64,000 nucleotides of DNA from the NCBI RefSeq assembly GCF_000834055.1, contig NZ_JXSQ01000008.1:1-64000 (forward strand), given 5' to 3'. A program made the position numbers and the translations under genes. This DNA comes from Leucobacter komagatae. Lineage in GTDB: Bacteria; Actinomycetota; Actinomycetes; Actinomycetales; Microbacteriaceae. Positions 3,367 to 30,899 of the stretch are shown here, piece after piece. The notes below the pieces were generated by a model. That model was not told where the DNA came from. It saw nothing but the letters and a program-made list of their open reading frames with translations, and searched no databases. How positions within the stretch are numbered: the stretch's first letter is position 1; the number at the start of each line of letters is the position of its first letter.

Positions 3367-3401
3367 GATGAGTCTCCCTTGTGTGATGTTTCCAGGATGT
3401 A

Positions 3402-3472
3402 TGGCCCAGGCGAGCGGCCGTTCACAGGTGTCGCTCCCCGATGGTTTCCATCTGCACGCCAGTCACGACCAT
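3402..3472 (-). promoter_or_regulatory. ZTP (pfl motif) riboswitch upstream of glyA
   Basis: Reading the minus strand, the leader starts with GGUCGUGACUGGCG (3470 downward). It continues with a perfect P2 hairpin GAUGG-AAA-CCAUC, then GGGGAGCGAC closing P1, and ends with the second conserved block CCGCUCGCCUGGGC (to about 3404). These are the two hallmark blocks of the pfl/ZTP aptamer, and glyA and folD are classic genes under it. No U-tailed terminator follows before the AAGGGAG ribosome site, so translational control is as likely as transcriptional control. Confidence 0.92.
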
Positions 3473-3549
3473 GCAATCCTAGCAGCGCCAGCGGTGGCGA
3501 TCGCTCGGGATCAGCACTGCACGAATTCAACGCGCCATATGAAGCCAGC

Positions 3550-19401: not shown

Positions 19402-20094
19402 TTACAAGTCGGCCCCGAGCGCAGCGAGCTGCACGCGCGACGTTGCCCCGCTCTTCGCGTACAGCGCGCCAACGTGCGTTTTCGCTGTGGTGAGGCCAAC
19501 GTGCAGCTCGTCAGCGATCTGCTGATTCGTGAGCCCGAGCACCAAGAGTGCGAGCACCTCGCGCTCGCGGGGCGTCAGCTCGCTCAGCCAGGCCACCGCC
19601 GGCGCGTCGGCGCCGCGTTGGGCTGCGCTGCCTGTTCCGCTTTCCGCTGATGCGCCGGCGCCGCGTTGGGCTGCGGCAAAGCCCGCGATGACGGAACCTG
19701 TGACCACCGGGTCAAGGACGTGCCGTTCAGCCGCGACGTGCCGCACCGCCTCGATGAGGTCGCCCCCGCTCGTGCTCTTCAGCAGGTAGCCGTGTGCTCC
19801 GGCAGCGAGCGCGCTCGCGAGGAGCTCGCCCGAGTCGTATGTGGTGAGCACCAACACGCGCGTAGCCGTCTCAGCGGTGATGCGCTCGGTCGCCCATACC
19901 CCGTCGGTTCCCGGCATGCGAAGGTCGAGAATCGCGACGTCTGGCCGCTCCCGGTGACATGCGGCGAGCGCGTCGAAGCCGTTTCCTGCCTCGGCTACGA
20001 CCTCGATGTCGTCACCGGTGTGCAGGATCGCAACGACCCCACTTCGCACCGCCTCATGGTCATCTGCGACGACGACTCGAATCGGGGTATTCAT
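19402..20094 (-). CDS. NarL/LuxR-family response regulator
   Basis: A 230-residue response regulator. The receiver domain occupies residues 5-120, with the acidic pair in VVADDHEAVRSGV, phospho-acceptor Asp in VAILDLRMPGTDGV, the conserved Thr in VLVLTTYDSG and Lys in GYLLKSTSGGDL. A LuxR-type helix-turn-helix is at the C-terminus (LTPREREVLALLVLGLTNQQ, then IADELHVGLTTAKTHVGALY). The linker contains Ala/Gly/Ser-rich low-complexity sequence. The start overlaps the histidine kinase stop by 4 nt, so they form one two-component system. Targets are unknown. Confidence 0.94.
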   Translation of the reverse strand: MNTPIRVVVADDHEAVRSGVVAILHTGDDIEVVAEAGNGFDALAACHRERPDVAILDLRMPGTDGVWATERITAETATRVLVLTTYDSGELLASALAAGAHGYLLKSTSGGDLIEAVRHVAAERHVLDPVVTGSVIAGFAAAQRGAGASAESGTGSAAQRGADAPAVAWLSELTPREREVLALLVLGLTNQQIADELHVGLTTAKTHVGALYAKSGATSRVQLAALGADL

Positions 20095-21314
20095 TGCGGC
20101 CTCCCGGCTTCGGTGTGGTGTAACGGAACGGTGAGTGTTGCTCGCCAGCCGCCAGGCGCCTGCGCCGATTCGAGTTCGCCGCCGACGCTCGCGAGCAGCA
20201 CCCTGGTGCCCCCGATCCCCAGCCCCGTGCCCGGCGGGCGCACCGGCGGGTGAGGCGGGACAGCGTTCTCGAGCGAGACACGCATGGTGCTGCCGTCCGG
20301 GGTGACTTCGGTGCGAAAGCTGACGTTGCCTTCGCCGTGTTTCGCGCTGTTTGCGACGAGCTCTTGGAGGGCGCGCAGCACGAGCTTCGCCCGAGTTGGC
20401 TCGGCGCTTTGGAGGGCCTCACTCAGGCGCTCTTTCGCTCCGGTCTCCCAGTCGAATGCTCGCCCGGCTGGAAGCATCTGCCCGAGCTGGGCGAACGCCT
20501 CAGCGAGCCGCACCGGGTCGCTGGGGTCACCGTCACCGGCAACCTCATCCACCACGGTGAGGACAGAGATGAGATCGCGCAGTTCGCGGTGGGCACGCTC
20601 CGTTCCGCTCGTTGCGCGATCAAGGCTCAGCGTGAGTTGCGCGAGTCCCCCAGCTGATTGCAGCTTCGCGGCTTGGAGTTTGGCCGCTTCGATGTGCAGG
20701 CCAGCAACGGCGATCTGGTTCGCGACGAGGTCATGGAGATCGTGGGCGATACGAGTGCGGAGCTCCCGGTTCTCGGCAGCGTGCCTTCCGGCGAGCTCCG
20801 TCCGCGTGAGCACTCGCTCGGCGCGGACGTTCCCTCCCCAGAGCCCCGATACGAGCACGATGAGTGCCCACTGAAACAGCATCACCGCGAGGTCGGGGCG
20901 ACTCTGCGCGACGAGAGGGATACCGATCGCGAGCCCAATACCAGCGGCCACGGCGATCCGCAGCAGGATCCGCACACCGCGTACGCTGCCGTACTTCACG
21001 GCAGCGTAGATGAGGTCGGTGAGTATGGCCACCACCGCAAGACTCGCTCCCATGAGCACATCGAGCGTCGCAACAACAACGCCTACCCCGAGCGCGAGCA
21101 TGGGCATACGCGTGCGCAGCAGGAGCAGTGCGCTCATGGCACCGAGCGTGAGCAGGAACGCCGACCGTGGGGCGTGCAGCACAGCGAGGTGCTGCCACAG
21201 GCCGAATACGCCGAACGACCAGAGCACGACGCCGACGACGAGCCAGAACACTGCGATCGCGATCGCACGGCTTGCCGGCTGCGACCGCAGTCTTTCAATC
21301 CAAGCAACGCCCAT
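20091..21314 (-). CDS. NarL-type sensor histidine kinase
   Basis: A 407-residue kinase with several N-terminal hydrophobic segments (about residues 15-150: AIAIAVFWLVVGVVLWSFGV, AFLLTLGAMSALLLLRTRM and others). A HisKA_3 box follows with the phosphorylated His in RTRIAHDLHDLVANQIAVAG, then a HATPase domain (LVLRALQELVANSAKHGEG, later PPGTGLGIGGTRVLLASVGG). There is no obvious extracellular sensor domain, so it probably senses membrane or intramembrane signals, as DesK-like kinases do. The start at 21314 (MGVAWIERL) is preferred because GAGG lies 8 nt upstream. A frame from 21353 is possible. Partner of the response regulator next to it. Confidence 0.9.
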   Translation of the reverse strand: MGVAWIERLRSQPASRAIAIAVFWLVVGVVLWSFGVFGLWQHLAVLHAPRSAFLLTLGAMSALLLLRTRMPMLALGVGVVVATLDVLMGASLAVVAILTDLIYAAVKYGSVRGVRILLRIAVAAGIGLAIGIPLVAQSRPDLAVMLFQWALIVLVSGLWGGNVRAERVLTRTELAGRHAAENRELRTRIAHDLHDLVANQIAVAGLHIEAAKLQAAKLQSAGGLAQLTLSLDRATSGTERAHRELRDLISVLTVVDEVAGDGDPSDPVRLAEAFAQLGQMLPAGRAFDWETGAKERLSEALQSAEPTRAKLVLRALQELVANSAKHGEGNVSFRTEVTPDGSTMRVSLENAVPPHPPVRPPGTGLGIGGTRVLLASVGGELESAQAPGGWRATLTVPLHHTEAGRPQ

Positions 21315-21421
21315 GGTTCCATCCTCGCGCACACGGGCCAAACCGGGGCTCATTCGAACGGAGGAGAAGGACCGACCGGCCGCATGACGCGCGCACGCTT
21401 CACGCCAGCGATGCTTGCTGG

Positions 21422-22003
21422 ATGAACATCATTGTGATCGGCATCATCGCCTGCGAGATCGGGTTTTGGGCTGTGCTCGCGGCGGGCCTTGGCGCACGCT
21501 ACCTGTTGCGCATGCGGCGGCTCTCGAGCGTGCTGCTGCTGTGCGTGCCGCTGCTCGACCTGCTGCTGCTCGGGCTTATCACGTGGGATCTCGCGGTCAA
21601 CGGCGCGACCGCCGACTTCGCGCACGGCCTCGGTGCGGTCTACCTCGGCTTCACGGTCGCGTTCGGCCATCAGATCATCGGACGCGCAGATGGCTGGTTC
21701 GCGCACCGCTTCGCCGGCGGCCCGCCACCGTTCAAGGCGCCGAAGTCTGGCCCTGCGCAGCTGCGGTACGAATGGCAGCAGTGGGGCAGGATGCTGCTCT
21801 GCGCGGTGATCGCGACCGCGGTGATCGGCCTCATCGTGTGGCTCGTCGGCGACACGTCGCGCACGGAACAGCTCGTCGGGTGGATCGGCCGCGTGTGGAT
21901 CGTCACCGGCATTTGGTTCGTCGGCTGGCCCCTGTGGCTGACGGTGTCGGGCGGCGGCAACGCGCGGAGTCAACCCGAGCGCGCCTCCTCCGAAGGGCAG
22001 TAA
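21422..22003 (+). CDS. Integral membrane protein of unknown function
   Basis: A 193-residue protein with about five hydrophobic segments: IIVIGIIACEIGFWAVLAAG at the N-terminus, SSVLLLCVPLLDLLLLGLIT, a segment around AHGLGAVYLGFTVAFGHQII, LLCAVIATAVIGLIVWLV, and a last one ending WFVGWPLWLTVSG. A hydrophilic loop with Phe, Pro and Lys (PPPFKAPKSGPAQLRYEW) separates TM3 from TM4. I cannot name the family with confidence. It is a single gene divergent from the histidine kinase, with about 107 nt between starts, and ends at a strong hairpin. ATG 21422 is chosen as the first Met of the hydrophobic N-terminus. Confidence 0.75.
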   Translation: MNIIVIGIIACEIGFWAVLAAGLGARYLLRMRRLSSVLLLCVPLLDLLLLGLITWDLAVNGATADFAHGLGAVYLGFTVAFGHQIIGRADGWFAHRFAGGPPPFKAPKSGPAQLRYEWQQWGRMLLCAVIATAVIGLIVWLVGDTSRTEQLVGWIGRVWIVTGIWFVGWPLWLTVSGGGNARSQPERASSEGQ

Positions 22004-22008
22004 CGGCA

Positions 22009-22047
22009 GAAGCCTGCCGGGAGAGGAGACCTCTCCCGGCAGGCTTC
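22009..22047. terminator. Bidirectional hairpin terminator (membrane protein / tctA)
   Basis: Perfect 17-bp arms (22009-22025, 22031-22047) with loop gagac, between convergent genes. It ends the putative mevalonate operon on the minus strand. Confidence 0.85.
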
Positions 22048-22058
22048 ACGCTGCATCA

Positions 22059-23441
22059 CTAACCGAATAGCGCTCCAATTGCCGGAACAGTCAACGCGGC
22101 TACGTAGTAGCCCATGAACTGAACACCGGTGTGCACCTGGAACATCCGGTTGAGGAGGCCACCGACGAGGCCGATGCTCACTGCGACAAGGAGAGCGACC
22201 GGGCCGCCCTCGTAGAGGCAGATAACCGCGATGAGGCCGGCAAACGCCCCGATGATCGCTTCGTGCGACACCTTGCGCATAATCCATGATGCGGCACGGT
22301 GGGCCTGGGTCATGGCAAACGGGTAGGTGATGAGCAACGCGATGATCACCGCGATGAGCCCGAATACCAAGAACTGCCACGGCTCGAGCATGTTGTGGAG
22401 GTTGTTCGTCGTGCCCGTCTCCGCGTCAATGGTGTACACCGGAGGTGCATTGAACAGCGGGTTGGCGGGGCCAGCCGCCATTGGCGACAGCGGCAGACCG
22501 ATCGCGATCAACGGAATAAGCGTCTCAGCGATATACGTCGACTCCGTCGTGCCGTTCTTGATCGCCATCATCGAGGTCAGACGCCGGTAACCGTTCTTGA
22601 TGCGGCCTCCGAATGTCTCGCCCATGAGCACCGTCATCGCTACTGGCGAGAATACGAAGGTGGCGCTCGATACAACGGCCGCAGCGGCGGTGCCGGAGAG
22701 CTGGCCACGGTCGAGCACGCGCAGCGGGTTCGGGGCACGACCCTTCCAGGTGCGCACGTCAGCGGCAAGCTCGAACGTGCGGGGGGCGTCGCGCTTGAGC
22801 AGTTTTCGCCCGACCGGGCTGGAAGCGAGCACAAGGTCAGCGATGAGCGGTCCGATCGCGATACCAAGGAAGAAGCTGATCGAGAGACCCTTGCCGAGCA
22901 CGCCTGTGGCCCACCCTTGCAGGCCGACAATGATGAGCACGAACGGTACGAGGGCGATCAGGGCGCCCCACCGGCCCTTCGAGAGCACGGCGATGAGCAC
23001 TGCCGCGGCAAGGAACAGCCACGGTGCTACCGAGCTGATCGCGTCAGAGAACGGAGTGAGGATCATCGCAAACAGCACGGCGAGTGGCACAGCAATGAGC
23101 GCGGCGACGACGCCACCAGAAATCGCTTTACGCAGCGCAATGTGGGGCACGCCAAGCTCGCGCAACATTTGCGCGTCTCGCAGCAGAGGCGCTGCGAGAG
23201 TATCTCCGGGGATACCCAAGAGCGTCGTCGGGATTGCGTGCGTGATGTGTTTAGCGGCGATCGCCGCCATGAAGAAGGCGAATACGCCGACCGGCGGCAC
23301 TCCCAATAGGATCACGAGGAGCGTAAGGGGCGCGATGGTCGCCGTTTCATCAGTGCCTGAGACGAGGCCGAGCAGACCAAACACTACGGCCCCAGCGAGG
23401 GCCATACTGATGGCCCAGAGAGCGAGTTCGAGGAGTTCCAT
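22059..23441 (-). CDS. TctA-family transporter permease, candidate mevalonate carrier
   Basis: A 460-residue membrane protein with about 10-12 hydrophobic segments. TctA-like features include TTLLGIPGDTLAAPLLRDAQ near residue 70 and, in the second half, ATFVFSPVAMTVLMGETFGG, TTESTYIAETLIPLIAIGLP and FNAPPVYTID. TctA proteins are the large subunits of tripartite tricarboxylate transporters. This one is shorter and more divergent than typical 500-residue members, and no TctC binding protein is nearby. It is last in the HMG-CoA reductase/lyase operon. Its ATG overlaps the stop of the small membrane protein (TAATG). Transport of mevalonate or another HMG-related acid is inferred from context only. 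Confidence 0.85.
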   Translation of the reverse strand: MELLELALWAISMALAGAVVFGLLGLVSGTDETATIAPLTLLVILLGVPPVGVFAFFMAAIAAKHITHAIPTTLLGIPGDTLAAPLLRDAQMLRELGVPHIALRKAISGGVVAALIAVPLAVLFAMILTPFSDAISSVAPWLFLAAAVLIAVLSKGRWGALIALVPFVLIIVGLQGWATGVLGKGLSISFFLGIAIGPLIADLVLASSPVGRKLLKRDAPRTFELAADVRTWKGRAPNPLRVLDRGQLSGTAAAAVVSSATFVFSPVAMTVLMGETFGGRIKNGYRRLTSMMAIKNGTTESTYIAETLIPLIAIGLPLSPMAAGPANPLFNAPPVYTIDAETGTTNNLHNMLEPWQFLVFGLIAVIIALLITYPFAMTQAHRAASWIMRKVSHEAIIGAFAGLIAVICLYEGGPVALLVAVSIGLVGGLLNRMFQVHTGVQFMGYYVAALTVPAIGALFG

Positions 23442-23878
23442 TAGTTCGTTGTCTCCTCTGTAGAGCGACGCTGCTCGTTCTTCAAGTGCTGCGCACGGAG
23501 GTCGTCGTAGAGGCCGAGTTCGCGCACCTCTGCAAGGGTCGCAGCCGGCAGCTCGTCAGGATCGCCGAGCGGGCCGAGCTCAGCCTCAATGGCGTCCATC
23601 GCCTCTGCTCGCGACCCAGTGCTGGCTTCGCCAATGCGAACAACGCGCTTGGGCTTGAAGATCCTGGCGGCGATCACTGCGGCAAGCACGCACGCGGCGA
23701 GTCCGCTCACGAGTGAGTAGGAGTGGGCGAGCGCGTCGCCTCCGGTGAGGATGCCAAAGCCCCACTCCGCGGCAAAATAGGCAGGCACGGCGATGCCGAC
23801 GCCGAGTCCGATCGAGGCGATGAGGTGCCGGCTGTCAACCGTGTCACCCCACACCTCCAGAAGGTGGTCGTTATTCAT
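23441..23878 (-). CDS. Small two-helix membrane protein partner of TctA
   Basis: A 145-residue protein with two hydrophobic helices (about residues 19-40, LIASIGLGVGIAVPAYFAAE, and 53-73, YSLVSGLAACVLAAVIAARI) and a charged cytosolic C-terminal tail of about 70 residues (AEAMDAIEAELGPLGD, LAEVRELGLYDDLRAQHLKN). It occupies the TctB position, but TctB normally has four membrane helices, and I see no TctB signature. It probably forms part of the permease complex. AGAGGAC precedes the ATG at 23878. Its stop overlaps the permease start, and the lyase gene lies 15 nt upstream, so all belong to one transcript. Confidence 0.75.
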   Translation of the reverse strand: MNNDHLLEVWGDTVDSRHLIASIGLGVGIAVPAYFAAEWGFGILTGGDALAHSYSLVSGLAACVLAAVIAARIFKPKRVVRIGEASTGSRAEAMDAIEAELGPLGDPDELPAATLAEVRELGLYDDLRAQHLKNEQRRSTEETTN

Positions 23879-23893
23879 TCAAGGTCCTCTTTT

Positions 23894-24835
23894 CTAGCGG
23901 GCCAGCGCCATTGCGACTCGTGATGTTGGGGGCTTCCGGAGCGCGGCGCTTAGCCACGCACTGGTCTCAGTCAGTGCATCGAGATCGATGCCAGTGCGAA
24001 TGCCCAGCCCAGCGAGCATCCAGAGAAGATCATCGGTTGCAAGGTTTCCCGTCGCCGATTTCGCAAAGGGACAGCCTCCGGTTCCGGCCGCCGAAGCATC
24101 GAAGACACGCACACCAGCGGCGAGACCTGCTGCGACGTTCGCGAGCGCTTGGCCATAGGTGTCGTGCATATGCAGGGCGAGATCGGTGATGGGGATCCCT
24201 TCGCCTGTCAGCGTGCGGATAACTTCGGTGACCTGGCCAGGGGTCGCGACGCCGATCGTGTCTCCGAGCGAGAGTTCGCTCACACCAAATGCGCGCATTC
24301 GCTGCGCGAGTCCGAGGACGTCGCGCACGTTGACGGCACCCTCCCACGGGTCACCGAACACCATCGACAGATAACCCCGAACTCGCACCCCGTCGGCCGC
24401 TGCCCGCGCCACTACCGCCGCCGCGGCAGCTTCCATTGCTTCGCGCGACGCGCCAAGATTGGACTGCGAGAACGACTCGGTGACGCTGAGAAAGACAGCG
24501 ATCTCCTCTGCACCTGCCGCCCTCGCGAGCTCATATCCGCGGAGGTTCGGTACGAGAACGGGCGTGCGAGCCTGCAGGTGGGAGACGCGACGAAGCACCT
24601 CGTCAGAACCCGCCATTGCTGGGACCCGGTCGGGCCGTACAAAGCTCCCCACCTCGATCACGGGGCACCCAGCGGCGGCAAGGCGCTCGATGAGCTCAAC
24701 CCGGTCGTCGATGCCGAGAATGCTGGCTTCCGCCTGCAACCCATCTCGCGGCGCCATCTCCCAAATCTCGACCGTGTCTGGCAGCCCAGCGAGCGGCGAC
24801 GCCGTGGGGAGACCGAGCGCCCGGATGTCGCTCAC
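23894..24835 (-). CDS. mvaB: Hydroxymethylglutaryl-CoA lyase
   Basis: HMG-CoA lyase splits HMG-CoA into acetyl-CoA and acetoacetate. The 313-residue TIM-barrel protein has the N-terminal metal motif EMAPRDGLQAE (Arg30, Asp31), EVGSFVRPDRVPAMAG, the metal histidines in LHMHDTYGQALAN and the flexible-loop signature GTGGCPFAKSATGNLATDDL with the catalytic cysteine at residue 255. The canonical loop is usually GGCPYAxGASGN, so Ser and Thr replace Gly and Ser here, a modest variation. The GTG start overlaps the HMG-CoA reductase stop (GTGA), so the two enzymes are translationally coupled. Isopropylmalate synthase-like relatives are excluded by the Cys loop. Confidence 0.95.
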   Translation of the reverse strand: MSDIRALGLPTASPLAGLPDTVEIWEMAPRDGLQAEASILGIDDRVELIERLAAAGCPVIEVGSFVRPDRVPAMAGSDEVLRRVSHLQARTPVLVPNLRGYELARAAGAEEIAVFLSVTESFSQSNLGASREAMEAAAAAVVARAAADGVRVRGYLSMVFGDPWEGAVNVRDVLGLAQRMRAFGVSELSLGDTIGVATPGQVTEVIRTLTGEGIPITDLALHMHDTYGQALANVAAGLAAGVRVFDASAAGTGGCPFAKSATGNLATDDLLWMLAGLGIRTGIDLDALTETSAWLSAALRKPPTSRVAMALAR

Positions 24836-26103
24836 TGCTGCTCCCGAAGCTGCGTGAGCAACTGCTCCGCAACATCCTGGCGCACCCGCCCGTCAGCGAC
24901 GAGAGCTGTGGCGAGCGCATCGACTTCCTCGGCGGCCGCGCCAGCTGCCACGGCGACGTTGCGTGCGTGCAGCCCCATGTGTCCGCGCTGAATTCCTTCC
25001 GCGGCAAGCGCCCGAACCGCTGCAACGTTCTGGGCGAGGCCGACTGCACAGACGATCTCACCAAGCTCTGCGGCAGAACGAACCTCGGTGATCCCGACAG
25101 CGGCGCGTGCCGCGGGATGGCTCTTCGTCGCCCCGCCGACAAGGCCGACAGCCATCGGGAGCTCGAGCGTTGCGACGAGCGCGCCCGAAGCATCCCGCTC
25201 AAAGCGCGAGAGAGCACGGTATCTTCCATCGCGTGCCGCGTAGGAATGCGCGCCAGCCTCTACGGCACGCGTGTCGTTTCCGGTTGCGAGGACCACCGCA
25301 GAGATGCCGTTCATGATGCCCTTGTTGTGGGTCGACGCACGGTAGGGATCGTCCACCGCGAGGAGGGCCCCAGTGAGCATGTCCGCGACGACCTGCTCTC
25401 CGCCGAGCGCCTCGGGTTCGATGCTGAGCTTGGCGCGTACCAGGCGCATGTCGGCAAGGTTGGTGAGGATCCGCAGCAGCGGCCTACCCCCGGCGATTTC
25501 TGCGAGCCGACCGGCGACCGCCTCAGCCATGGTATTCACGGCGTTTGCGCCCATAGCATCCGCGACATCGACGACGAGATGAACGACCACGTGCACGCCA
25601 CCCGCAGAGCTGGGCACCAGGCGAACCCGGACCTCGCGTGCTCCCCCGCCGATCTCAACGAGCTTTGGGTCCTGCTCGTTCGCGAGCGTGATGATTTCGA
25701 CCGCTGACTCGAGGATACGTGCACGCGCGCCGTGCGGGTCCGTGACGTCAAGCAGCTGGATCTGGGCTTGCATGAGCGGAGCGCTCGTGGTGGTGGTGAT
25801 GCCGCCGAGCGGCCGCGCCATGCGAGCAATGTTCGACGCTGCGGCGACGACGGAAGGCTCTTCCGTTGCCATGGGCACGAGGACTTCGCGCCCGTTGACG
25901 ATGAAGTTTGTTGCAATGCCGACGGGGACACCAATCTGGCCGATAACGTTTTCGATCATCCGCTCGGCCTGCTCTTCGGAGAGGCCATCGCCCGTGAGCG
26001 GTTGAAGCGCGACCTCATCGATGTCCAGCGCTTCGGCGAGCGCGGTGCGCCGCTCTGAAACGCTGAGATTACGGAGTCCGCTCAGGCGGGAAGTCTTGGC
26101 CAC
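24832..26103 (-). CDS. mvaA: Hydroxymethylglutaryl-CoA reductase, class II (degradative type)
   Basis: A 423-residue HMG-CoA reductase of the Pseudomonas mevalonii class. The run matches that class: the ENVIG segment, IATNFIVNGREVLVPMATEE with an acidic pair at 81-82, DAMGANAVNTMAE at 182-194, THNKGIMNGI with Lys261, Asp277 in ATGNDTRA, GLAQNVAAVRALAAEGIQRG and His375 in RGHMGLHARN. No membrane anchor is present. In P. mevalonii this enzyme oxidises mevalonate plus CoA to HMG-CoA with NAD+. It is coupled to HMG-CoA lyase here, and no mevalonate kinase is nearby, so degradation is the likely direction. GTG start with GAGAGGA upstream. Confidence 0.93.
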   Translation of the reverse strand: MAKTSRLSGLRNLSVSERRTALAEALDIDEVALQPLTGDGLSEEQAERMIENVIGQIGVPVGIATNFIVNGREVLVPMATEEPSVVAAASNIARMARPLGGITTTTSAPLMQAQIQLLDVTDPHGARARILESAVEIITLANEQDPKLVEIGGGAREVRVRLVPSSAGGVHVVVHLVVDVADAMGANAVNTMAEAVAGRLAEIAGGRPLLRILTNLADMRLVRAKLSIEPEALGGEQVVADMLTGALLAVDDPYRASTHNKGIMNGISAVVLATGNDTRAVEAGAHSYAARDGRYRALSRFERDASGALVATLELPMAVGLVGGATKSHPAARAAVGITEVRSAAELGEIVCAVGLAQNVAAVRALAAEGIQRGHMGLHARNVAVAAGAAAEEVDALATALVADGRVRQDVAEQLLTQLREQQ

Positions 26104-26185
26104 GTCTTTGTCCTCTCATGCGGACCGCGCACGCCGCGGTCACCCCATCCGAGCTATCAAAGCAGGCCGAGCACCGCGAGATCAG

Positions 26186-26208
26186 GTCCAAATTGGACGT
26201 AATTGGAC
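26186..26208. promoter_or_regulatory. Candidate operator for the mevalonate operon
   Basis: The perfect palindrome gtccaa-a-ttggac (26186-26198) is followed by a second aattggac copy (26201-26208), exactly 10 bp from the first. It lies about 83-105 nt upstream of the HMG-CoA reductase start, in the 111-bp gap after the regulator gene. Position and helical phasing suit an activator site. Confidence 0.55.
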
Positions 26209-26214
26209 GGTCGA

Positions 26215-28032
26215 CTATGTCTCTTTGAGAGCCCGGCGCGCTACCTCGACCCGCACAGCTATCTCGAGCCGGAACCGCGCCTCTGGGTTGTCGGCCGCAT
26301 CCCCGATGAGGGGACGCAGGCGCTGCACGCGCTGTTTGAGCGTGTTGAGGTGAATGTGTAGCTCGCGCGAAGCGGCGGTGAGTGACCATCTCGTATCAAA
26401 CAGCGCCGCGAGCGTCTCGACCAGCTGTGAGCCGTTGGCACTGTCCCAGGCGATCACCGGCGCGAGCGTGTCCGCAACAAATTCCCTGAGCCGACCCCCA
26501 TCTCCGCCGAATAGGAGCGCGTATGGCGCAAGCGTCGACACCGGAGCAATGCCGCTGCCGAGGCCGAGGCCGAGCGCAAGCTTTGAACTCTGAACAGCCT
26601 CTTCCACGCCTTTGGCCGCACCCTCAAGACTCGGAGCGTGGAGATAGACACCACCGACGCGCGGCTGCCCTGTCGCCGCGACAATGCGCTCGCCTCGCTC
26701 CCCAGCGCAACGCAGCGGCGCGAGCACCCCGATCCCCGTTGGAACAGGGGCAGCGAGGTATTCGTGACGCCGCCGAACACCGGCAAGGGCCGCAGCGCGC
26801 TGCTCGGGCGGGAGTACCGCAACGAACAAGACCCACGGCTCGGCAACGGCATACCCTCTGGCCGCGGCCCTGCTGATACCTGACTCACGGCGCTCTGGTT
26901 CGAACAGTTCAACTGCGAGCTCGCCGCGTACACGATCCTCTGCTTGCTCCACAGCGTCATGTCTCAGCGTCACGAGTGCCGCGATCACTGCGGAGCGTTC
27001 GACCGCCCGCTGCTCTACGGAGGTCAGCGGGGAGCGGCCACGCTCGACAACGATCGCGCCGAGGTGGCCCGTCGCGGCAAGCACTGGCGCAACCAGCTCG
27101 ACGGCACCGCTGCTCAGCCGGATACTCTTGCCCCCGGCCACAGCTCGCTCGATGTGCGCGCGCATACTGCGCCGCTGTTCGCCACCTGCGAGCTGCCCAG
27201 TGACGGGCTTCCCCGCGACGTCGAGGAGCCCAACTTTGCGCTGCAGCGCATCACCCAGGGCGCCGATCACGGCGTCCGTTCCGTACCCGAACACGACAAG
27301 GTCGGTGAGTTCACCGTGCAGCGACGCCGCCCACTCTGCAGCGTGCTGCCGCTCGGCCGCCTGCGCGGTCGCGGTGGTTGCCTCTTGCAGCAGTCGCGCC
27401 GTTTGCAACACCAGCGCCGCATGTCCGGCGAACGTGGTCAGCAGCGAAATTTCTTCCGGCCTGAAACTGTGCGGCTGTCGGCTCGCACCAAACAACACTC
27501 CAAGTACGTCGTCACCGACGACGAGCGGGACGCCAACGAGCGAACGGAGCTGCTCTTCCCGCAGGATGTCGTCGATGACGGGGTCGTGCGGAACGCTTGT
27601 GAGCGCGTCGTAGTCCTCCACCCACTGCGGGTGTCTGGTGCGCGCAACGAGGCTCGCGAGACCGATGCCTGCCGGAACAACCATCGTGAGGAACCGTGGC
27701 GACGTCGTGCCCGTCGCGGCACGCACATACAGCTCCTCGTTGCTTGCGTCGTAAACAGAGAGATACGCGATGTCGAGTTCGATGAGTTCGTGTGCGCGAT
27801 CGACGATGCGGTGCAGCAGGAGCTCAGCGTCCGTCGTCGACAGCAGGTCGCGTGTTGACGACATGACCGCGCGCAGCTCGGTGCTGCGCTGGCGAAGGCC
27901 AGCTGTGCGTCGCGATAGGTCGAGGAGAGCCTCGGCTACGTCAGCTTCCGCTGTGACAGCACGAATGTCTTGCTCGGGCACATGCGCACCCTCACCCATG
28001 CGACGGATGAGGCCAGCAAGGTCTTCCGCCAC
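26215..28032 (-). CDS. GAF-domain PucR/CdaR-type transcriptional regulator
   Basis: A 605-residue regulator. Residues about 70-220 form a GAF domain (LLLHRIVDRAHELIELDIAY, VGVPLVVGDDVLGVLFGASR, then SFRPEEISLLTTFAGHAALV). A middle region with PucR/CdaR-like character follows, and the PucR-type C-terminal helix-turn-helix is at about 540-595 (LVETLAALFDTRWSLTAASR, then ELHIHLNTLKQRVQRL). Such proteins usually activate catabolic operons when a small molecule binds. It lies directly upstream of the HMG-CoA reductase operon on the same strand. Its GTG start is only 7 nt after the rimK stop with no clear Shine-Dalgarno, suggesting reinitiation or an internal promoter. Confidence 0.88.
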   Translation of the reverse strand: MAEDLAGLIRRMGEGAHVPEQDIRAVTAEADVAEALLDLSRRTAGLRQRSTELRAVMSSTRDLLSTTDAELLLHRIVDRAHELIELDIAYLSVYDASNEELYVRAATGTTSPRFLTMVVPAGIGLASLVARTRHPQWVEDYDALTSVPHDPVIDDILREEQLRSLVGVPLVVGDDVLGVLFGASRQPHSFRPEEISLLTTFAGHAALVLQTARLLQEATTATAQAAERQHAAEWAASLHGELTDLVVFGYGTDAVIGALGDALQRKVGLLDVAGKPVTGQLAGGEQRRSMRAHIERAVAGGKSIRLSSGAVELVAPVLAATGHLGAIVVERGRSPLTSVEQRAVERSAVIAALVTLRHDAVEQAEDRVRGELAVELFEPERRESGISRAAARGYAVAEPWVLFVAVLPPEQRAAALAGVRRRHEYLAAPVPTGIGVLAPLRCAGERGERIVAATGQPRVGGVYLHAPSLEGAAKGVEEAVQSSKLALGLGLGSGIAPVSTLAPYALLFGGDGGRLREFVADTLAPVIAWDSANGSQLVETLAALFDTRWSLTAASRELHIHLNTLKQRVQRLRPLIGDAADNPEARFRLEIAVRVEVARRALKET

Positions 28033-28039
28033 GGTGCCG

Positions 28040-29236
28040 CTACCCGTCTACGAAGTTCTGCGCCTCGGGCGGGAGTTTCCGCACGCGGGCGCGGCGACGC
28101 GGACGCTCGGGGATCATGGATCGCATCTCTTCGAGCTTGCCAAAGCAGAGCAGTCGGTCTTCTGGCTCAAGCACGACGTGCTTGCGCGGGTTCGGGATCA
28201 CCTGAACGCCGCGGTGCAGCGTGAGCACGGTGATATCACGCTCCCACAGCCCGAGGTCGCCGAGCTGCTTGCCCACGTGTTCCGCGCCGGCGTGCATTGC
28301 GAGCTCCGCAACGCCGTAGCCGGTGGAGACGGAGAGGCGTTGGCGTACGTCGATCTCGGGGAAGTTCACCTGGTTCGCGATGTAGTCGATGATCGCGCCG
28401 GCGATATCGAGGTCGGTCGCGGTCTCGATGCCCTGCAGGCCCGGGGAGGAGTTGACCTCCATGACGAGTGGGCCGTCGTCGCCCTCGAGCATATCGACGC
28501 CCGCGACGCGGAGGCCCATGATCTGGGCTGCGCGCACCGCGGTCTGTTCGTATGCGGGATCGAGTTGCACGGGCTCGACGGTGCCGCCGCGGTGCACGTT
28601 CGAACGGAATTCGTCTCCGGATGCGACGCGGCGCATCGCTGCGACGACGCGGTCCCCAACGACGAGGGCGCGGATGTCGCGGCCCCGGCTCTCGGAGATG
28701 AACTTCTGGATGAGCACGTTCTGCCTCGTCGAGTGCAACGTCTCGATAATGGCCTCGGCGACCTTCACCTGGGGGGCGAGGATCACGCCAATCCCCTGCG
28801 TGCCCTCGAGCAGCTTGATGACGACGGGTGCGCCGCCGACGGATTCGATCGCTGGGCGCACGTCGGCTCGGTTGCGCACGAATGCGGTCGGCGGCATGTC
28901 GATCGAGTGCCGTGAGAGGATCTGGATGGCTCGCAGCTTGTCGCGCGCGTTCGAGATGCCGTTCGCGGTGTTCGGCGTGTAGACGTCCATCTGCTCGAAC
29001 TGGCGAACGACGGCGGTGCCGAAGTAGGTGATGGAGTTGCCGATGCGGGGCAGGATCGCGTCGTAGTCGCTCAGCTGTTTGCCGCGATAACGCAGGTCCG
29101 GTTCATCGGTCGCAAGGTCGATCGCAAAGCGAAGGGTGTTCAGCACCTTCACGTTATGACCGCGCTGTTCAGCGGCCGCGCGGAGGCGCTGCGTCGAGTA
29201 CGCCTGTGGGGCGCGCGAAAGAATCGCCAGTTTCAA
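28040..29236 (-). CDS. rimK: RimK-family ATP-grasp ligase with C-terminal RCK_C-like domain
   Basis: RimK adds glutamates to ribosomal protein S6 or related targets using ATP. Residues 1-290 match RimK: LKLAILSRAPQAYSTQRL, the ATP-grasp core PVVIKLLEGTQGIGVILAP, IQKFISESRGRDIRALVVGD and the metal site MEVNSSPGLQGIE. About 100 residues follow that the 300-residue E. coli protein lacks. They resemble a TrkA/RCK_C ligand-binding domain (WERDITVLTLHRGVQVIPNP, then EPEDRLLCFGKLEEM). The start is TTG 29236 with CAGGAA upstream. It is divergent from a RimB-like protease with only 26 nt between start codons. Confidence 0.92.
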   Translation of the reverse strand: MKLAILSRAPQAYSTQRLRAAAEQRGHNVKVLNTLRFAIDLATDEPDLRYRGKQLSDYDAILPRIGNSITYFGTAVVRQFEQMDVYTPNTANGISNARDKLRAIQILSRHSIDMPPTAFVRNRADVRPAIESVGGAPVVIKLLEGTQGIGVILAPQVKVAEAIIETLHSTRQNVLIQKFISESRGRDIRALVVGDRVVAAMRRVASGDEFRSNVHRGGTVEPVQLDPAYEQTAVRAAQIMGLRVAGVDMLEGDDGPLVMEVNSSPGLQGIETATDLDIAGAIIDYIANQVNFPEIDVRQRLSVSTGYGVAELAMHAGAEHVGKQLGDLGLWERDITVLTLHRGVQVIPNPRKHVVLEPEDRLLCFGKLEEMRSMIPERPRRRARVRKLPPEAQNFVDG

Positions 29237-29262
29237 GCTGATTTCCTGCCAAGATAGGTGCC

Positions 29263-29739
29263 GTGGACAAAGACTATTCAAGCACCCTTACGGGCTGGCG
29301 CGAATGGGTGAGCCTGCCCGGTGTTGGAGTGCAGTGGATCAAGGCCAAGATCGACACCGGGGCGCAAACCTCGGCCTTGCACGCGGGCAACATTACCCCC
29401 TTCGATCGTGACGGGGCCGAGTGGGTCAGGTTCACAGTGCAACCGTGGCAGGAGGGGGCGCTCGACCTCGTCGAGGTTGAGCTGCCGATTCACGATAGGC
29501 GCACGGTTCGGAGCTCGTCTGGGCACACGCAGGACCGGCTCGTTGTGGTGATGGAGCTCGGCCTCGTCGGCCGGGTCGTGCCCGTCGAGGTGACCCTCAC
29601 GGATCGCGAGGAGATGGTCTTTCGCATGCTCATCGGGCGCGAAGCACTCAAGCAGGGCTACGTGGTCGACTCGGGCGCGTCGTACCTGGGGGGCCGCCCG
29701 CCGGCGGCAATCCGGAAACGCAACCGCGGCCGCGCATAG
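29263..29739 (+). CDS. RimB-like retropepsin-type aspartic peptidase
   Basis: A 158-residue protein of the family once called putative ATP-dependent zinc protease and later RimB, a retropepsin-like aspartic endopeptidase linked to RimK. The catalytic motif IKAKIDTGAQTSALHA is near residue 30, with the Asp-Thr-Gly triad intact. The later MLIGREALKQGYVVDSGASY completes the fold. RimB trims glutamate tails made by RimK. The GTG start at 29263 is 7 nt after CAAGAT, a weak -10-like sequence. It faces rimK head to head, so their promoters must overlap the opposite coding region or yield leaderless RNAs. Confidence 0.88.
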   Translation: MDKDYSSTLTGWREWVSLPGVGVQWIKAKIDTGAQTSALHAGNITPFDRDGAEWVRFTVQPWQEGALDLVEVELPIHDRRTVRSSSGHTQDRLVVVMELGLVGRVVPVEVTLTDREEMVFRMLIGREALKQGYVVDSGASYLGGRPPAAIRKRNRGRA

Positions 29740-29789
29740 GCTTTTCAATCCGCACTCACAAACCCCTGGTCAGGTCGCTGCGGCGTGGG

Positions 29790-29795
29790 TAGTCT
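29790..29795 (+). promoter_or_regulatory. -10 box for leaderless N-formylglutamate amidohydrolase-like gene
   Basis: TAGTCT, 6 nt before the ATG at 29802. Confidence 0.55.
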
Positions 29796-29801
29796 GAGCA
29801 C

Positions 29802-30899
29802 ATGAGCACGAACTCACTCGACCTAATCCCGGCCGGCACGATCTTCACCGCTGAACAGATCACGCACTACGCGAACCCGGAGACCCGTACGCTCGAAGAA
29901 GCGATCGCCGACGCCGATGTGTTGGTTGCCACACCACACTCTGGCGCAGCAATCCCCGAGGAGCTCGCCGAGTTCCTCTCACCCGCGCTCACCCGCAGGC
30001 TGCAATACGACTTTTCGGACGTTGCAACCGCGGCGATCGTGCGTCGTTGGGCCGAGATTGACCCCCGCATCGTCGCGGTGATCAACCCGCACCCGCGCCT
30101 CATCCGCGACCCGAACCGGAAGAAGCCAGCCGACGTGCGCGCCGATCTCGCCGCAGCGATTGAGCGGGTGCGAGAGGCCGGAGCGTGGCAGAAGGTCGAC
30201 CTCACCGGCGTTGACGCGATCCGCCCCGTCACGTTCTCGTTTTTCCCGATCCTCGAGATCCCTGACACAGACGAGGGGCTGCAGCGCCTCGTTGACGCCT
30301 TCGCGGACACCGCCGAGCAGGGGCTTGGCGTGTACGAGCGCACACGGGAGGAACTCACCGACAGGTTTGTCGCCAAGGGCCTCGAACAGGGCGGCTCGTT
30401 CACCAGGTTGTCATTCCACGACACGATGAACACGACGACGACCCGCGAGGGTGCGGTGAACGTCGAGCGCGCCGAGGCAGATCGGCTCCCAGCAGTCGTC
30501 GCGCTCTCGAACCGCGGCGACCACGACGGCGAGGAGCGAGACCCGTCGGATCTCCCCACCATGGACCCTGCGGACCTGCGGGCGCTCGCTGCCGCCCACC
30601 GCTCCGGCTTCGAGGTCACGGATCCCGCCGCCGTGCTGCTCAACCAGCCCTACCTTGGCAGCGAGGAAATCCGCGCGGCCGGCGAACGCTTCGGCAAGCT
30701 ACGCGCCGACGCCGACGCAGCCGGGCTCAAGCTGGGCGCGGTGCAGGCCGAGTTCCTTCGCGAATTCCTGCTCGGTGCCCCGGCCGCGACAGAGCTCCAA
30801 CAACCAGGGACCGACTGGGTCGCCGAGGACCCGGCGCACGTCGACATGATCGCACGCGCCTGCAAGCGAGCTTGGGACGCGTTCCGCGACGCGCAGTAA
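29802..30899 (+). CDS. N-formylglutamate amidohydrolase family protein
   Basis: A 365-residue protein of the FGase family, members of which release formate from N-formylglutamate or act on related amides. Visible family elements are VLVATPHSGAAIPEELAEFL, an aspartate-rich DFSDVATAAIV, INPHPRLIRDPNRKKPADVR and the metal-ligand-like FTRLSFHDTMN. Family members are usually about 270 residues, and this one is longer mainly through the C-terminal 80 residues (LKLGAVQAEFLREFLLGAP and on). The gene next to it encodes an acetyltransferase. No histidine-utilisation genes are nearby, so a histidine-degradation role is unsupported and the true substrate is open. Confidence 0.8.
   Translation: MSTNSLDLIPAGTIFTAEQITHYANPETRTLEEAIADADVLVATPHSGAAIPEELAEFLSPALTRRLQYDFSDVATAAIVRRWAEIDPRIVAVINPHPRLIRDPNRKKPADVRADLAAAIERVREAGAWQKVDLTGVDAIRPVTFSFFPILEIPDTDEGLQRLVDAFADTAEQGLGVYERTREELTDRFVAKGLEQGGSFTRLSFHDTMNTTTTREGAVNVERAEADRLPAVVALSNRGDHDGEERDPSDLPTMDPADLRALAAAHRSGFEVTDPAAVLLNQPYLGSEEIRAAGERFGKLRADADAAGLKLGAVQAEFLREFLLGAPAATELQQPGTDWVAEDPAHVDMIARACKRAWDAFRDAQ

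What the first reader, a model, noticed from the sequence alone, without database searches (positions are those of the whole stretch)
22059..28032. Probable mevalonate uptake and catabolism operon in an actinobacterium
Seen: a class II HMG-CoA reductase (Lys261, Asp277, His375 in place), an HMG-CoA lyase with Cys255, a small two-helix membrane protein and a TctA permease run head to tail with GTGA and TAATG overlaps, ending in a 17-bp hairpin. Known: class II reductases such as P. mevalonii MvaA degrade mevalonate, and the lyase completes its conversion to acetyl-CoA and acetoacetate. Inference: the permease complex imports mevalonate. No mevalonate kinase, phosphomevalonate kinase or HMG-CoA synthase is in the window, which argues against isoprenoid synthesis.
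Basis: partly seen in the sequence, partly recalled or inferred. Interest (0 to 1): 0.82.

Follow-up and report, generated by a model that had tools for sequence, protein, structure and literature searches.

The report
Mevalonate-eating operon with dedicated importer
A bacterium related to Leucobacter carries a compact gene set that most likely imports mevalonate and burns it as food, using a membrane transporter of a known family that seems to work without its usual binding protein and with a small, undescribed partner.

Summary
On the minus strand lie a GAF/PucR regulator, a class II HMG-CoA reductase (HMGR), an HMG-CoA lyase (HMGL), a two-helix membrane protein ("SMALL") and a divergent TctA permease, ending in an 18-bp hairpin. 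The near-complete genome has this HMGR only, no HMG-CoA synthase match, no mevalonate kinase over cut-off, an MEP-pathway Dxr and one CoA-transferase pair. A scan with TctA alone returned 80 loci: HMGR is close by in 78, SMALL directly upstream in 79. In 394 genomes of the class, 8 of the 9 with this TctA, the window's own included, have the HMGR beside it. The ninth, and one genome of its family, keep SMALL-TctA with a CoA-transferase, an alcohol and an aldehyde dehydrogenase instead, a set that could also turn mevalonate into HMG-CoA. TctC is missing from 7 of 47 genomes searched; the window genome's one copy lies elsewhere. New are the transporter assignment, the apparent lack of a binding protein, and the HMGR-free variant. 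Transport and growth were not tested.

The parts
26215..28032 (-). Regulator, GAF domain plus PucR-type C-terminal helix-turn-helix (605 aa); probably senses a pathway compound
   Evidence: Pfam GAF_2, GAF, HTH_30 over cut-off; tblastn hit in 51 of 80 TctA-selected loci; 25 of the 80 have a MocR-like regulator instead
26185..26199 (.). Candidate operator, imperfect palindrome of the type TGTCC-N5-GGACA, between regulator and HMGR
   Evidence: 23 of 33 regulator-HMGR stretches that I picked have it with at most 2 mismatches, 2.9 expected from shuffles; pattern chosen after seeing the sequences; the window's copy has 2 mismatches (shuffle p 0.07); the Rhodococcus, Nocardia and Tomitella stretches lack it
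24832..26103 (-). Class II HMG-CoA reductase, proposed to run as mevalonate + CoA + 2 NAD+ to HMG-CoA
   Evidence: PF00368, TIGR00532; PDB hits 6dio 452 bits and 1qax 419 bits, next group 280 bits or less; residues in place; only PF00368 match in the genome
23894..24835 (-). HMG-CoA lyase, HMG-CoA to acetyl-CoA + acetoacetate
   Evidence: NF004283 332 bits, cut-off 246; PDB 2ftp 256 bits; Cys255 and the 4-base overlap with HMGR
23441..23878 (-). SMALL: 145-aa protein with two membrane helices; conserved ExWGDTVDxRH, FxPKR and ExxxLGLY motifs; proposed TctA partner
   Evidence: No Pfam or NCBIfam match at E<=0.001; scattered weak hits only, best E 0.019, when 20 members were scanned up to E 1; 119 proteins found; alignment; AlphaFold pLDDT 86.8, pTM 0.52; hydropathy; less than 200 bases upstream of TctA in 79 of 80 loci
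22059..23441 (-). Divergent TctA-family permease, proposed mevalonate importer
   Evidence: PF01970 65 bits, cut-off 28.9; no significant similarity to the genome's other TctA (E 0.19); HMGR close by in 78 of 80 loci
22009..22047 (.). 18-bp perfect hairpin with AGA loop between tctA and the convergent gene 21422-22003(+); probably the operon's end
   Evidence: not listed by the terminator scan

Best explanation
This is a mevalonate-use operon. SMALL and TctA form an importer that takes up mevalonate, driven by an ion gradient and without a TctC binding protein. HMGR oxidises it to HMG-CoA with CoA and NAD+, and HMGL splits HMG-CoA into acetyl-CoA and acetoacetate. A CoA-transferase encoded elsewhere probably activates acetoacetate. 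The GAF/PucR regulator upstream probably senses a pathway compound and acts at a GTCC-N5-GGAC palindrome before HMGR. Shown here: the genes, their order, conservation and co-occurrence, the lack of a recognisable biosynthetic mevalonate pathway, and the lack of TctC in the operon. Inferred: substrate, direction, coupling ion, independence from a binding protein, fate of acetoacetate, and regulation.
For: One HMGR, no HMG-CoA synthase match, no mevalonate kinase over cut-off, Dxr present. A CoA-transferase pair passes the scoA/pcaI and scoB/pcaJ family cut-offs. HMGR is closest to a PDB group that includes 1qax (P. mevalonii; organism recalled), 419-452 bits against at most 280 for the next group. 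With TctA alone as the query, 78 of 80 loci have HMGR close by and 79 of 80 have SMALL. In the class sample of 394 genomes, TctA is in 9 and HMGR over cut-off in 16, 8 shared and all side by side; Fisher p 8e-12, or 2e-10 without the window's own genome. HMGL-like genes at E<=1e-30 are in 30 of 30 genomes searched: 26 of the 28 TctA-selected loci without an in-line HMGL, one locus that has it (L025), and three class-sample loci. G483 and G832 keep SMALL-TctA and HMGL (truncated in G832) with CoA-transferase, alcohol and aldehyde dehydrogenase in place of HMGR; G483 has no TIGR00532 match anywhere. In 3 of 3 Pseudomonas loci an OprD-like porin gene follows TctA, which fits uptake.
Against: No transport, growth or expression data. 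TIGR00532 cannot by itself tell degradation from synthesis: one of 14 control genomes passed its cut-off, and none of the five that rang is a known mevalonate degrader to my knowledge. L037 and L195 have SMALL-TctA with no HMGR in the stretch read; their genomes were not searched for HMGR. A TctC elsewhere could serve this permease: 40 of 47 genomes have at least one, and the 2018 review says that the TTT systems characterised so far speak against working without a binding protein. Several HMGL-like hits are only about 40% identical and could be other lyases. The CoA-transferase models also cover 3-oxoadipate enzymes. The mirror-tree correlations (0.87-0.93, 75 loci) are partly shared ancestry.
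Confidence: 0.85

Rival explanations
1. The permease carries a different branched C5-C6 acid that also feeds HMG-CoA, such as 3-hydroxy-3-methylglutarate or 3-methylglutaconate, and HMGR serves a side route.
For: A second operon type joins HMGR, and usually HMGL, to a family III CoA-transferase and a dehydratase-like protein, as expected for activating such acids. One Azorhizobium locus (L073) and one Pseudomonas locus (L079) combine the CoA-transferase with SMALL-TctA. L037 and L195 have the pair with no HMGR beside it.
Against: The window operon has no CoA-activating enzyme, so a free HMG-type acid could not enter the pathway by the operon alone (family III transferases elsewhere in the genome were not searched). 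HMGR takes mevalonate without prior activation (established knowledge). In G483 and G832 the alcohol and aldehyde dehydrogenases would be needless for HMG itself.
Confidence: 0.1
2. HMGR runs in the reductive direction and TctA exports mevalonate, for example from leucine breakdown.
For: Leucine breakdown yields HMG-CoA (established knowledge), and the reaction is reversible.
Against: HMGL is in the operon and would drain HMG-CoA. An OprD-like porin gene follows TctA in 3 of 3 Pseudomonas loci. No leucine-pathway gene other than HMGL is in the operon.
Confidence: 0.03
3. The HMGR serves isoprenoid synthesis.
For: Biosynthetic class II HMGRs exist, and the TIGR00532 cut-off admits one control genome.
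Against: No HMG-CoA synthase match and no mevalonate kinase over cut-off in a genome estimated 99.97% complete, and Dxr is present.
Confidence: 0.01

Closest known systems
Pseudomonas mevalonii mvaAB mevalonate-degradation operon (recalled; no paper on it was read here)
   Same: HMGR followed by HMGL, proposed net conversion of mevalonate to acetyl-CoA and acetoacetate
   Different: Actinobacterial; GAF/PucR regulator; SMALL-TctA in the operon. The gene for mevalonate transport in P. mevalonii is not known to me
Tripartite tricarboxylate transporters (TctABC), reviewed in PMC5812351 (passages and section 12 read)
   Same: TctA-family permease with a small membrane protein encoded directly before it
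   Different: No TctC in the operon; partner has two helices, not the 4-5 the review reports for TctB; no significant similarity to the other TctA of the same genome. The review notes archaeal TctA homologues without TctB or TctC, so a lone permease is not without parallel
Second HMGR operon type seen here: HMGR, usually HMGL, CoA-transferase III, usually a dehydratase-like gene
   Same: HMGR in 8 of 8 loci, HMGL in 6 of 8, a regulator of the same type in 7 of 8
   Different: No SMALL or TctA found in the stretches read; an MFS transporter of one family near 3 of the 8; the CoA-transferase suggests additional acid substrates

Membership tests
Mevalonate degradation operon (mvaAB type) | Class II HMGR of the degradative group with complete catalytic residues | tested here: met
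   the assignment to the degradative group rests on PDB similarity, as TIGR00532 alone does not decide it
Mevalonate degradation operon (mvaAB type) | HMGL linked to HMGR, catalytic Cys present | tested here: met
Mevalonate degradation operon (mvaAB type) | No biosynthetic mevalonate pathway in the genome | tested here: met
   no HMGS match, no mevalonate kinase over cut-off, Dxr present
Mevalonate degradation operon (mvaAB type) | Growth on mevalonate and NAD+-dependent mevalonate oxidation | not testable with these tools
   needs an experiment
Tripartite tricarboxylate transporter (TTT) | TctA-family permease | tested here: met
   PF01970 65 bits over 28.9, but divergent
Tripartite tricarboxylate transporter (TTT) | TctB with 4-5 helices | tested here: not met
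   SMALL has two helices by model and hydropathy, and no TctB family match was listed for any of 20 members up to E 1
Tripartite tricarboxylate transporter (TTT) | TctC binding protein encoded with the permease | tested here: not met
   none in the operon; the genome's only PF03401 match lies on another contig, next to genes that I read by eye as tctB and tctA; 7 of 47 related genomes have no match
PucR/CdaR-like regulators | PucR-type C-terminal HTH | tested here: met
   PF13556 59 bits over 27

The most novel reading that the evidence does not exclude
SMALL-TctA is a dedicated mevalonate importer that works without any solute-binding protein, with a new two-helix subunit family. Some actinobacteria pair it with an HMGR-free route, mevalonate to mevaldate to HMG to HMG-CoA by alcohol dehydrogenase, aldehyde dehydrogenase and a family III CoA-transferase.
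Probability: 0.5. Interest if true: 0.68.

Novelty: new variant of a known kind. Interest (0 to 1): 0.55.

Why it matters
No natural bacterial mevalonate transporter turned up in the listings of my paper searches; the larger searches listed only their top 20, and most subscription journals are not held. A gene pair that can be tested directly would fill that gap and could help feed mevalonate to engineered isoprenoid producers. It also bears on an open question in the TTT field: the 2018 review PMC5812351 was left with one bacterial genome, Mageeibacillus indolicus, with a tctA and no sign of a binding protein nearby, and asked whether such permeases work alone (passage read). Here is a conserved clade in which that can be tested.

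Tried and rejected
Fold searches of the TctA and SMALL models against the PDB gave no match at E<=0.001, so no mechanism is drawn from structure. The TctA model is moderate (pLDDT 74.4). A profile search of PDB sequences with the TctA alignment gave nothing up to E 1. The sigma-70 scan gave no promoter. Export and biosynthesis were considered and set aside, see rivals. A tblastn search for TctC in the 80 loci with one sequence (2 of 80, distant from TctA) is weak evidence; the profile search of 47 genomes carries the argument.

My own gene caller is crude: it missed HMGR in L124, L126 and L130 and merged genes in L072 and L023, so positions there come from tblastn. In one search one neighbour (21422-22003) was translated in a wrong frame; one search repeats it correctly. 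For one search I sent L025 by mistake although it has an in-line HMGL, and left out L026 and L087. The 33 stretches were my pick: 30 of the 51 loci with the regulator, two Leucobacter loci and the window, leaving out many near-identical Brevibacterium and some Rhodococcus loci; I had read 26 of the stretches before choosing the pattern, so its enrichment is not an independent test. Four of the six plasmid hits were opened.
Full report
WHAT IS THERE. The minus strand carries, in order of transcription, a regulator (26215-28032), HMGR (24832-26103), HMGL (23894-24835), SMALL (23441-23878) and TctA (22059-23441), then an 18-bp hairpin (22009-22047). The gaps are 111 bases from regulator to HMGR, a 4-base overlap to HMGL, 15 bases to SMALL, and a TAATG junction to TctA. 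HMGR passes PF00368 and TIGR00532, HMGL passes NF004283, TctA passes PF01970, and SMALL matches no family at E<=0.001. HMGR scores 419-452 bits against 6dio, 6p7k, 9v7y and 1qax in the PDB but 280 bits or less against the next group.

THE GENOME. The window's genome (3.67 Mb, 99.97% complete) has one PF00368 match, this one. It has no HMG-CoA synthase match, no mevalonate kinase over cut-off (one partial 20.9-bit hit, cut-off 163) and a Dxr of the MEP pathway. It has one CoA-transferase pair, which passes the pcaI/scoA and pcaJ/scoB family cut-offs; these models do not separate acetoacetate from 3-oxoadipate enzymes. The nearest named relative by HMGR is Leucobacter aridicollis, 87%. HMGR occurs in 4 of 54 genomes of the genus, so it is patchy.

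THE TRANSPORTER LINK. A genome scan with the TctA alignment alone found 388 relatives and returned the best 80. HMGR lies close by in 78 of 80, in 77 upstream on the same strand within 3.6 kb; SMALL lies less than 200 bases upstream of TctA in 79 of 80. The exceptions are L087, where TctA starts 75 bases from the contig end, and L037, which has SMALL but no HMGR in the stretch held. The loci span Microbacterium, Agrococcus, Brevibacterium, Nocardiopsis, Rhodococcus and others, and Burkholderia, Achromobacter, Pseudomonas, Paracoccus and others. The regulator type changes with lineage: a GAF/PucR-type hit in 51 of 80, a MocR-like hit in 25 of 80, all of the latter in proteobacteria (three checked by Pfam). 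In 394 genomes of the class, drawn evenly and including the window's own, TctA (E<=1e-15) is in 9 and HMGR over cut-off in 16; 8 have both, in each case side by side; p 8e-12, or 2e-10 without the window's genome. Three annotated plasmid copies (Roseomonas, Lichenicola, Rhizobium) have HMGR, a hypothetical protein in SMALL's place, TctA and an HMGL gene; a Burkholderia replicon has HMGR-SMALL-TctA without HMGL in the stretch.

HMGL ELSEWHERE. Of the 80 loci, 28 lack an in-line HMGL (25 with no hit, 3 with a hit on the other strand). I searched the genomes of 26 of these, of L025 (which has one) and of three HMGR loci of the class sample: 30 of 30 have an HMGL-like gene at E<=1e-30. Several are only about 40% identical and may be other lyases.

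A NATURAL SUBSTITUTION. The ninth TctA genome of the class sample, G483, has no TIGR00532 match at all. Its order is CoA-transferase III, zinc alcohol dehydrogenase, aldehyde dehydrogenase, SMALL, TctA, HMGL, with a divergent LysR regulator. A search of 401 genomes of its family found TctA in 27: 23 with HMGR beside it (some of them genomes already among the 80), G483 and G832 with the dehydrogenase set, one (L195) with neither, and one (L196) a partial TctA without HMGR. In G832, another genus, the order is the same, but only a truncated HMGL remains, beside an IS3 transposase gene; G832 was not searched for HMGR outside the stretch. The best-scoring CoA-transferase model is succinate-glutarate CoA-transferase, far below its cut-off of 750 bits (310 and 295 bits), so it does not assign the substrate. 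The parsimonious reading is mevalonate to mevaldate to HMG to HMG-CoA. Mevalonate is the simplest compound that fits both gene sets. This is inference.

A SECOND OPERON TYPE. Of the other 8 HMGR genomes in the class sample, 7 have a family III CoA-transferase next to HMGR and no TctA in the stretch read; 6 of the 7 also have the dehydratase-like gene, 5 of 7 an HMGL, 6 of 7 the regulator; the eighth (G268) is cut by its contig end. In one of the 7 (G309) HMGR is found in two pieces. A Leucobacter genome (G018) has this type at the same chromosomal place where the window and two other Leucobacter genomes (G003, G004) have the TctA type: next to a rimK-rimB-FGase group (88-97% identical) and, in the window, G004 and G018, on the other side a membrane-protein and kinase group; in G003 that group lies about 6.5 kb further on. 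The two types may therefore replace each other. An MFS transporter of one family lies near 3 of the 8 loci of this type (L123, L126, L129).

NO BINDING PROTEIN. The genome's one TctC lies on another contig, beside genes that I read by eye from the ORF list as tctB, tctA and a two-component system (no family search was made of these). Of 47 genomes searched (47 of the 54 loci that are not proteobacterial), 40 have a TctC and 7 have none; five of the 7 are isolates by their titles, two carry uncultured or MAG titles. Their completeness was not told. The review PMC5812351 gives TctB 4-5 helices and says that the systems characterised so far speak against working without TctC, while archaeal TctA homologues occur without TctB or TctC (passages and section 12). 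SMALL has two helices by hydropathy and model. A conserved ExWGDTVDxRH motif precedes the first helix. So the pair resembles a TTT permease in outline but fails two defining features of the family.

REGULATION. A palindrome TGTCC-N5-GGACA or a near form occurs between regulator and HMGR in 23 of 33 stretches with at most 2 mismatches, against 2.9 expected; the Rhodococcus, Nocardia and Tomitella stretches do not have it, and the window's copy alone is not significant (p 0.07). It is a candidate operator only.

LITERATURE. Ten paper searches were made; six of them held more papers than were listed. None of the listings showed a natural bacterial mevalonate transporter or an HMGR-free mevalonate breakdown; a yeast JEN1 evolved into a mevalonate transporter was listed (PMC12405511, listing only). 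Mevaldate reductase is described as a known activity in PMC4020792 (passage read).

VERDICT. An ordinary pathway at its core, mevalonate breakdown, with a strong and testable assignment of its importer and two unusual features: no binding protein, and a route without HMGR in two genomes.

Noticed in passing
window 3397-3476 (-): ZMP/ZTP riboswitch match, 51.7 bits over a gathering score of 39.
   Followed up: no
window 28040-30899: RimK-type ligase with a TrkA_C domain, a Zn_protease-family (RimB-like) protein and an N-formylglutamate amidohydrolase-family protein; the group is 88-97% conserved beside the operon site in three other Leucobacter genomes.
   Followed up: partly
L123 (G018) against window 20091-30899: Same chromosomal site carries the CoA-transferase-type HMGR operon in one Leucobacter and the TctA type in three (window's included); an IS481-type transposase gene lies beside it in G018.
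   Followed up: partly
L123-L126, L128-L131: HMGR operon type with family III CoA-transferase and, in 7 of 8, a dehydratase-like gene; possibly for 3-methylglutaconate or HMG as well as mevalonate.
   Followed up: partly
L067 9375-10652 and 7 other Burkholderia loci: An alpha/beta hydrolase gene follows TctA in 8 loci; could be a mevalonolactonase.
   Followed up: no
L079, L080, L082: OprD-like porin gene after TctA in the three Pseudomonas loci (Pfam for L080; similarity for the others).
   Followed up: partly
L195 7753-9632: SMALL-TctA pair with no HMGR or HMGL in the 18 kb read, near an MFS transporter gene; substrate unexplained.
   Followed up: no
L198, Rhizobium etli plasmid pRsp8C3a: The gene set lies on a plasmid typed as conjugative, so it may move between strains.
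   Followed up: no
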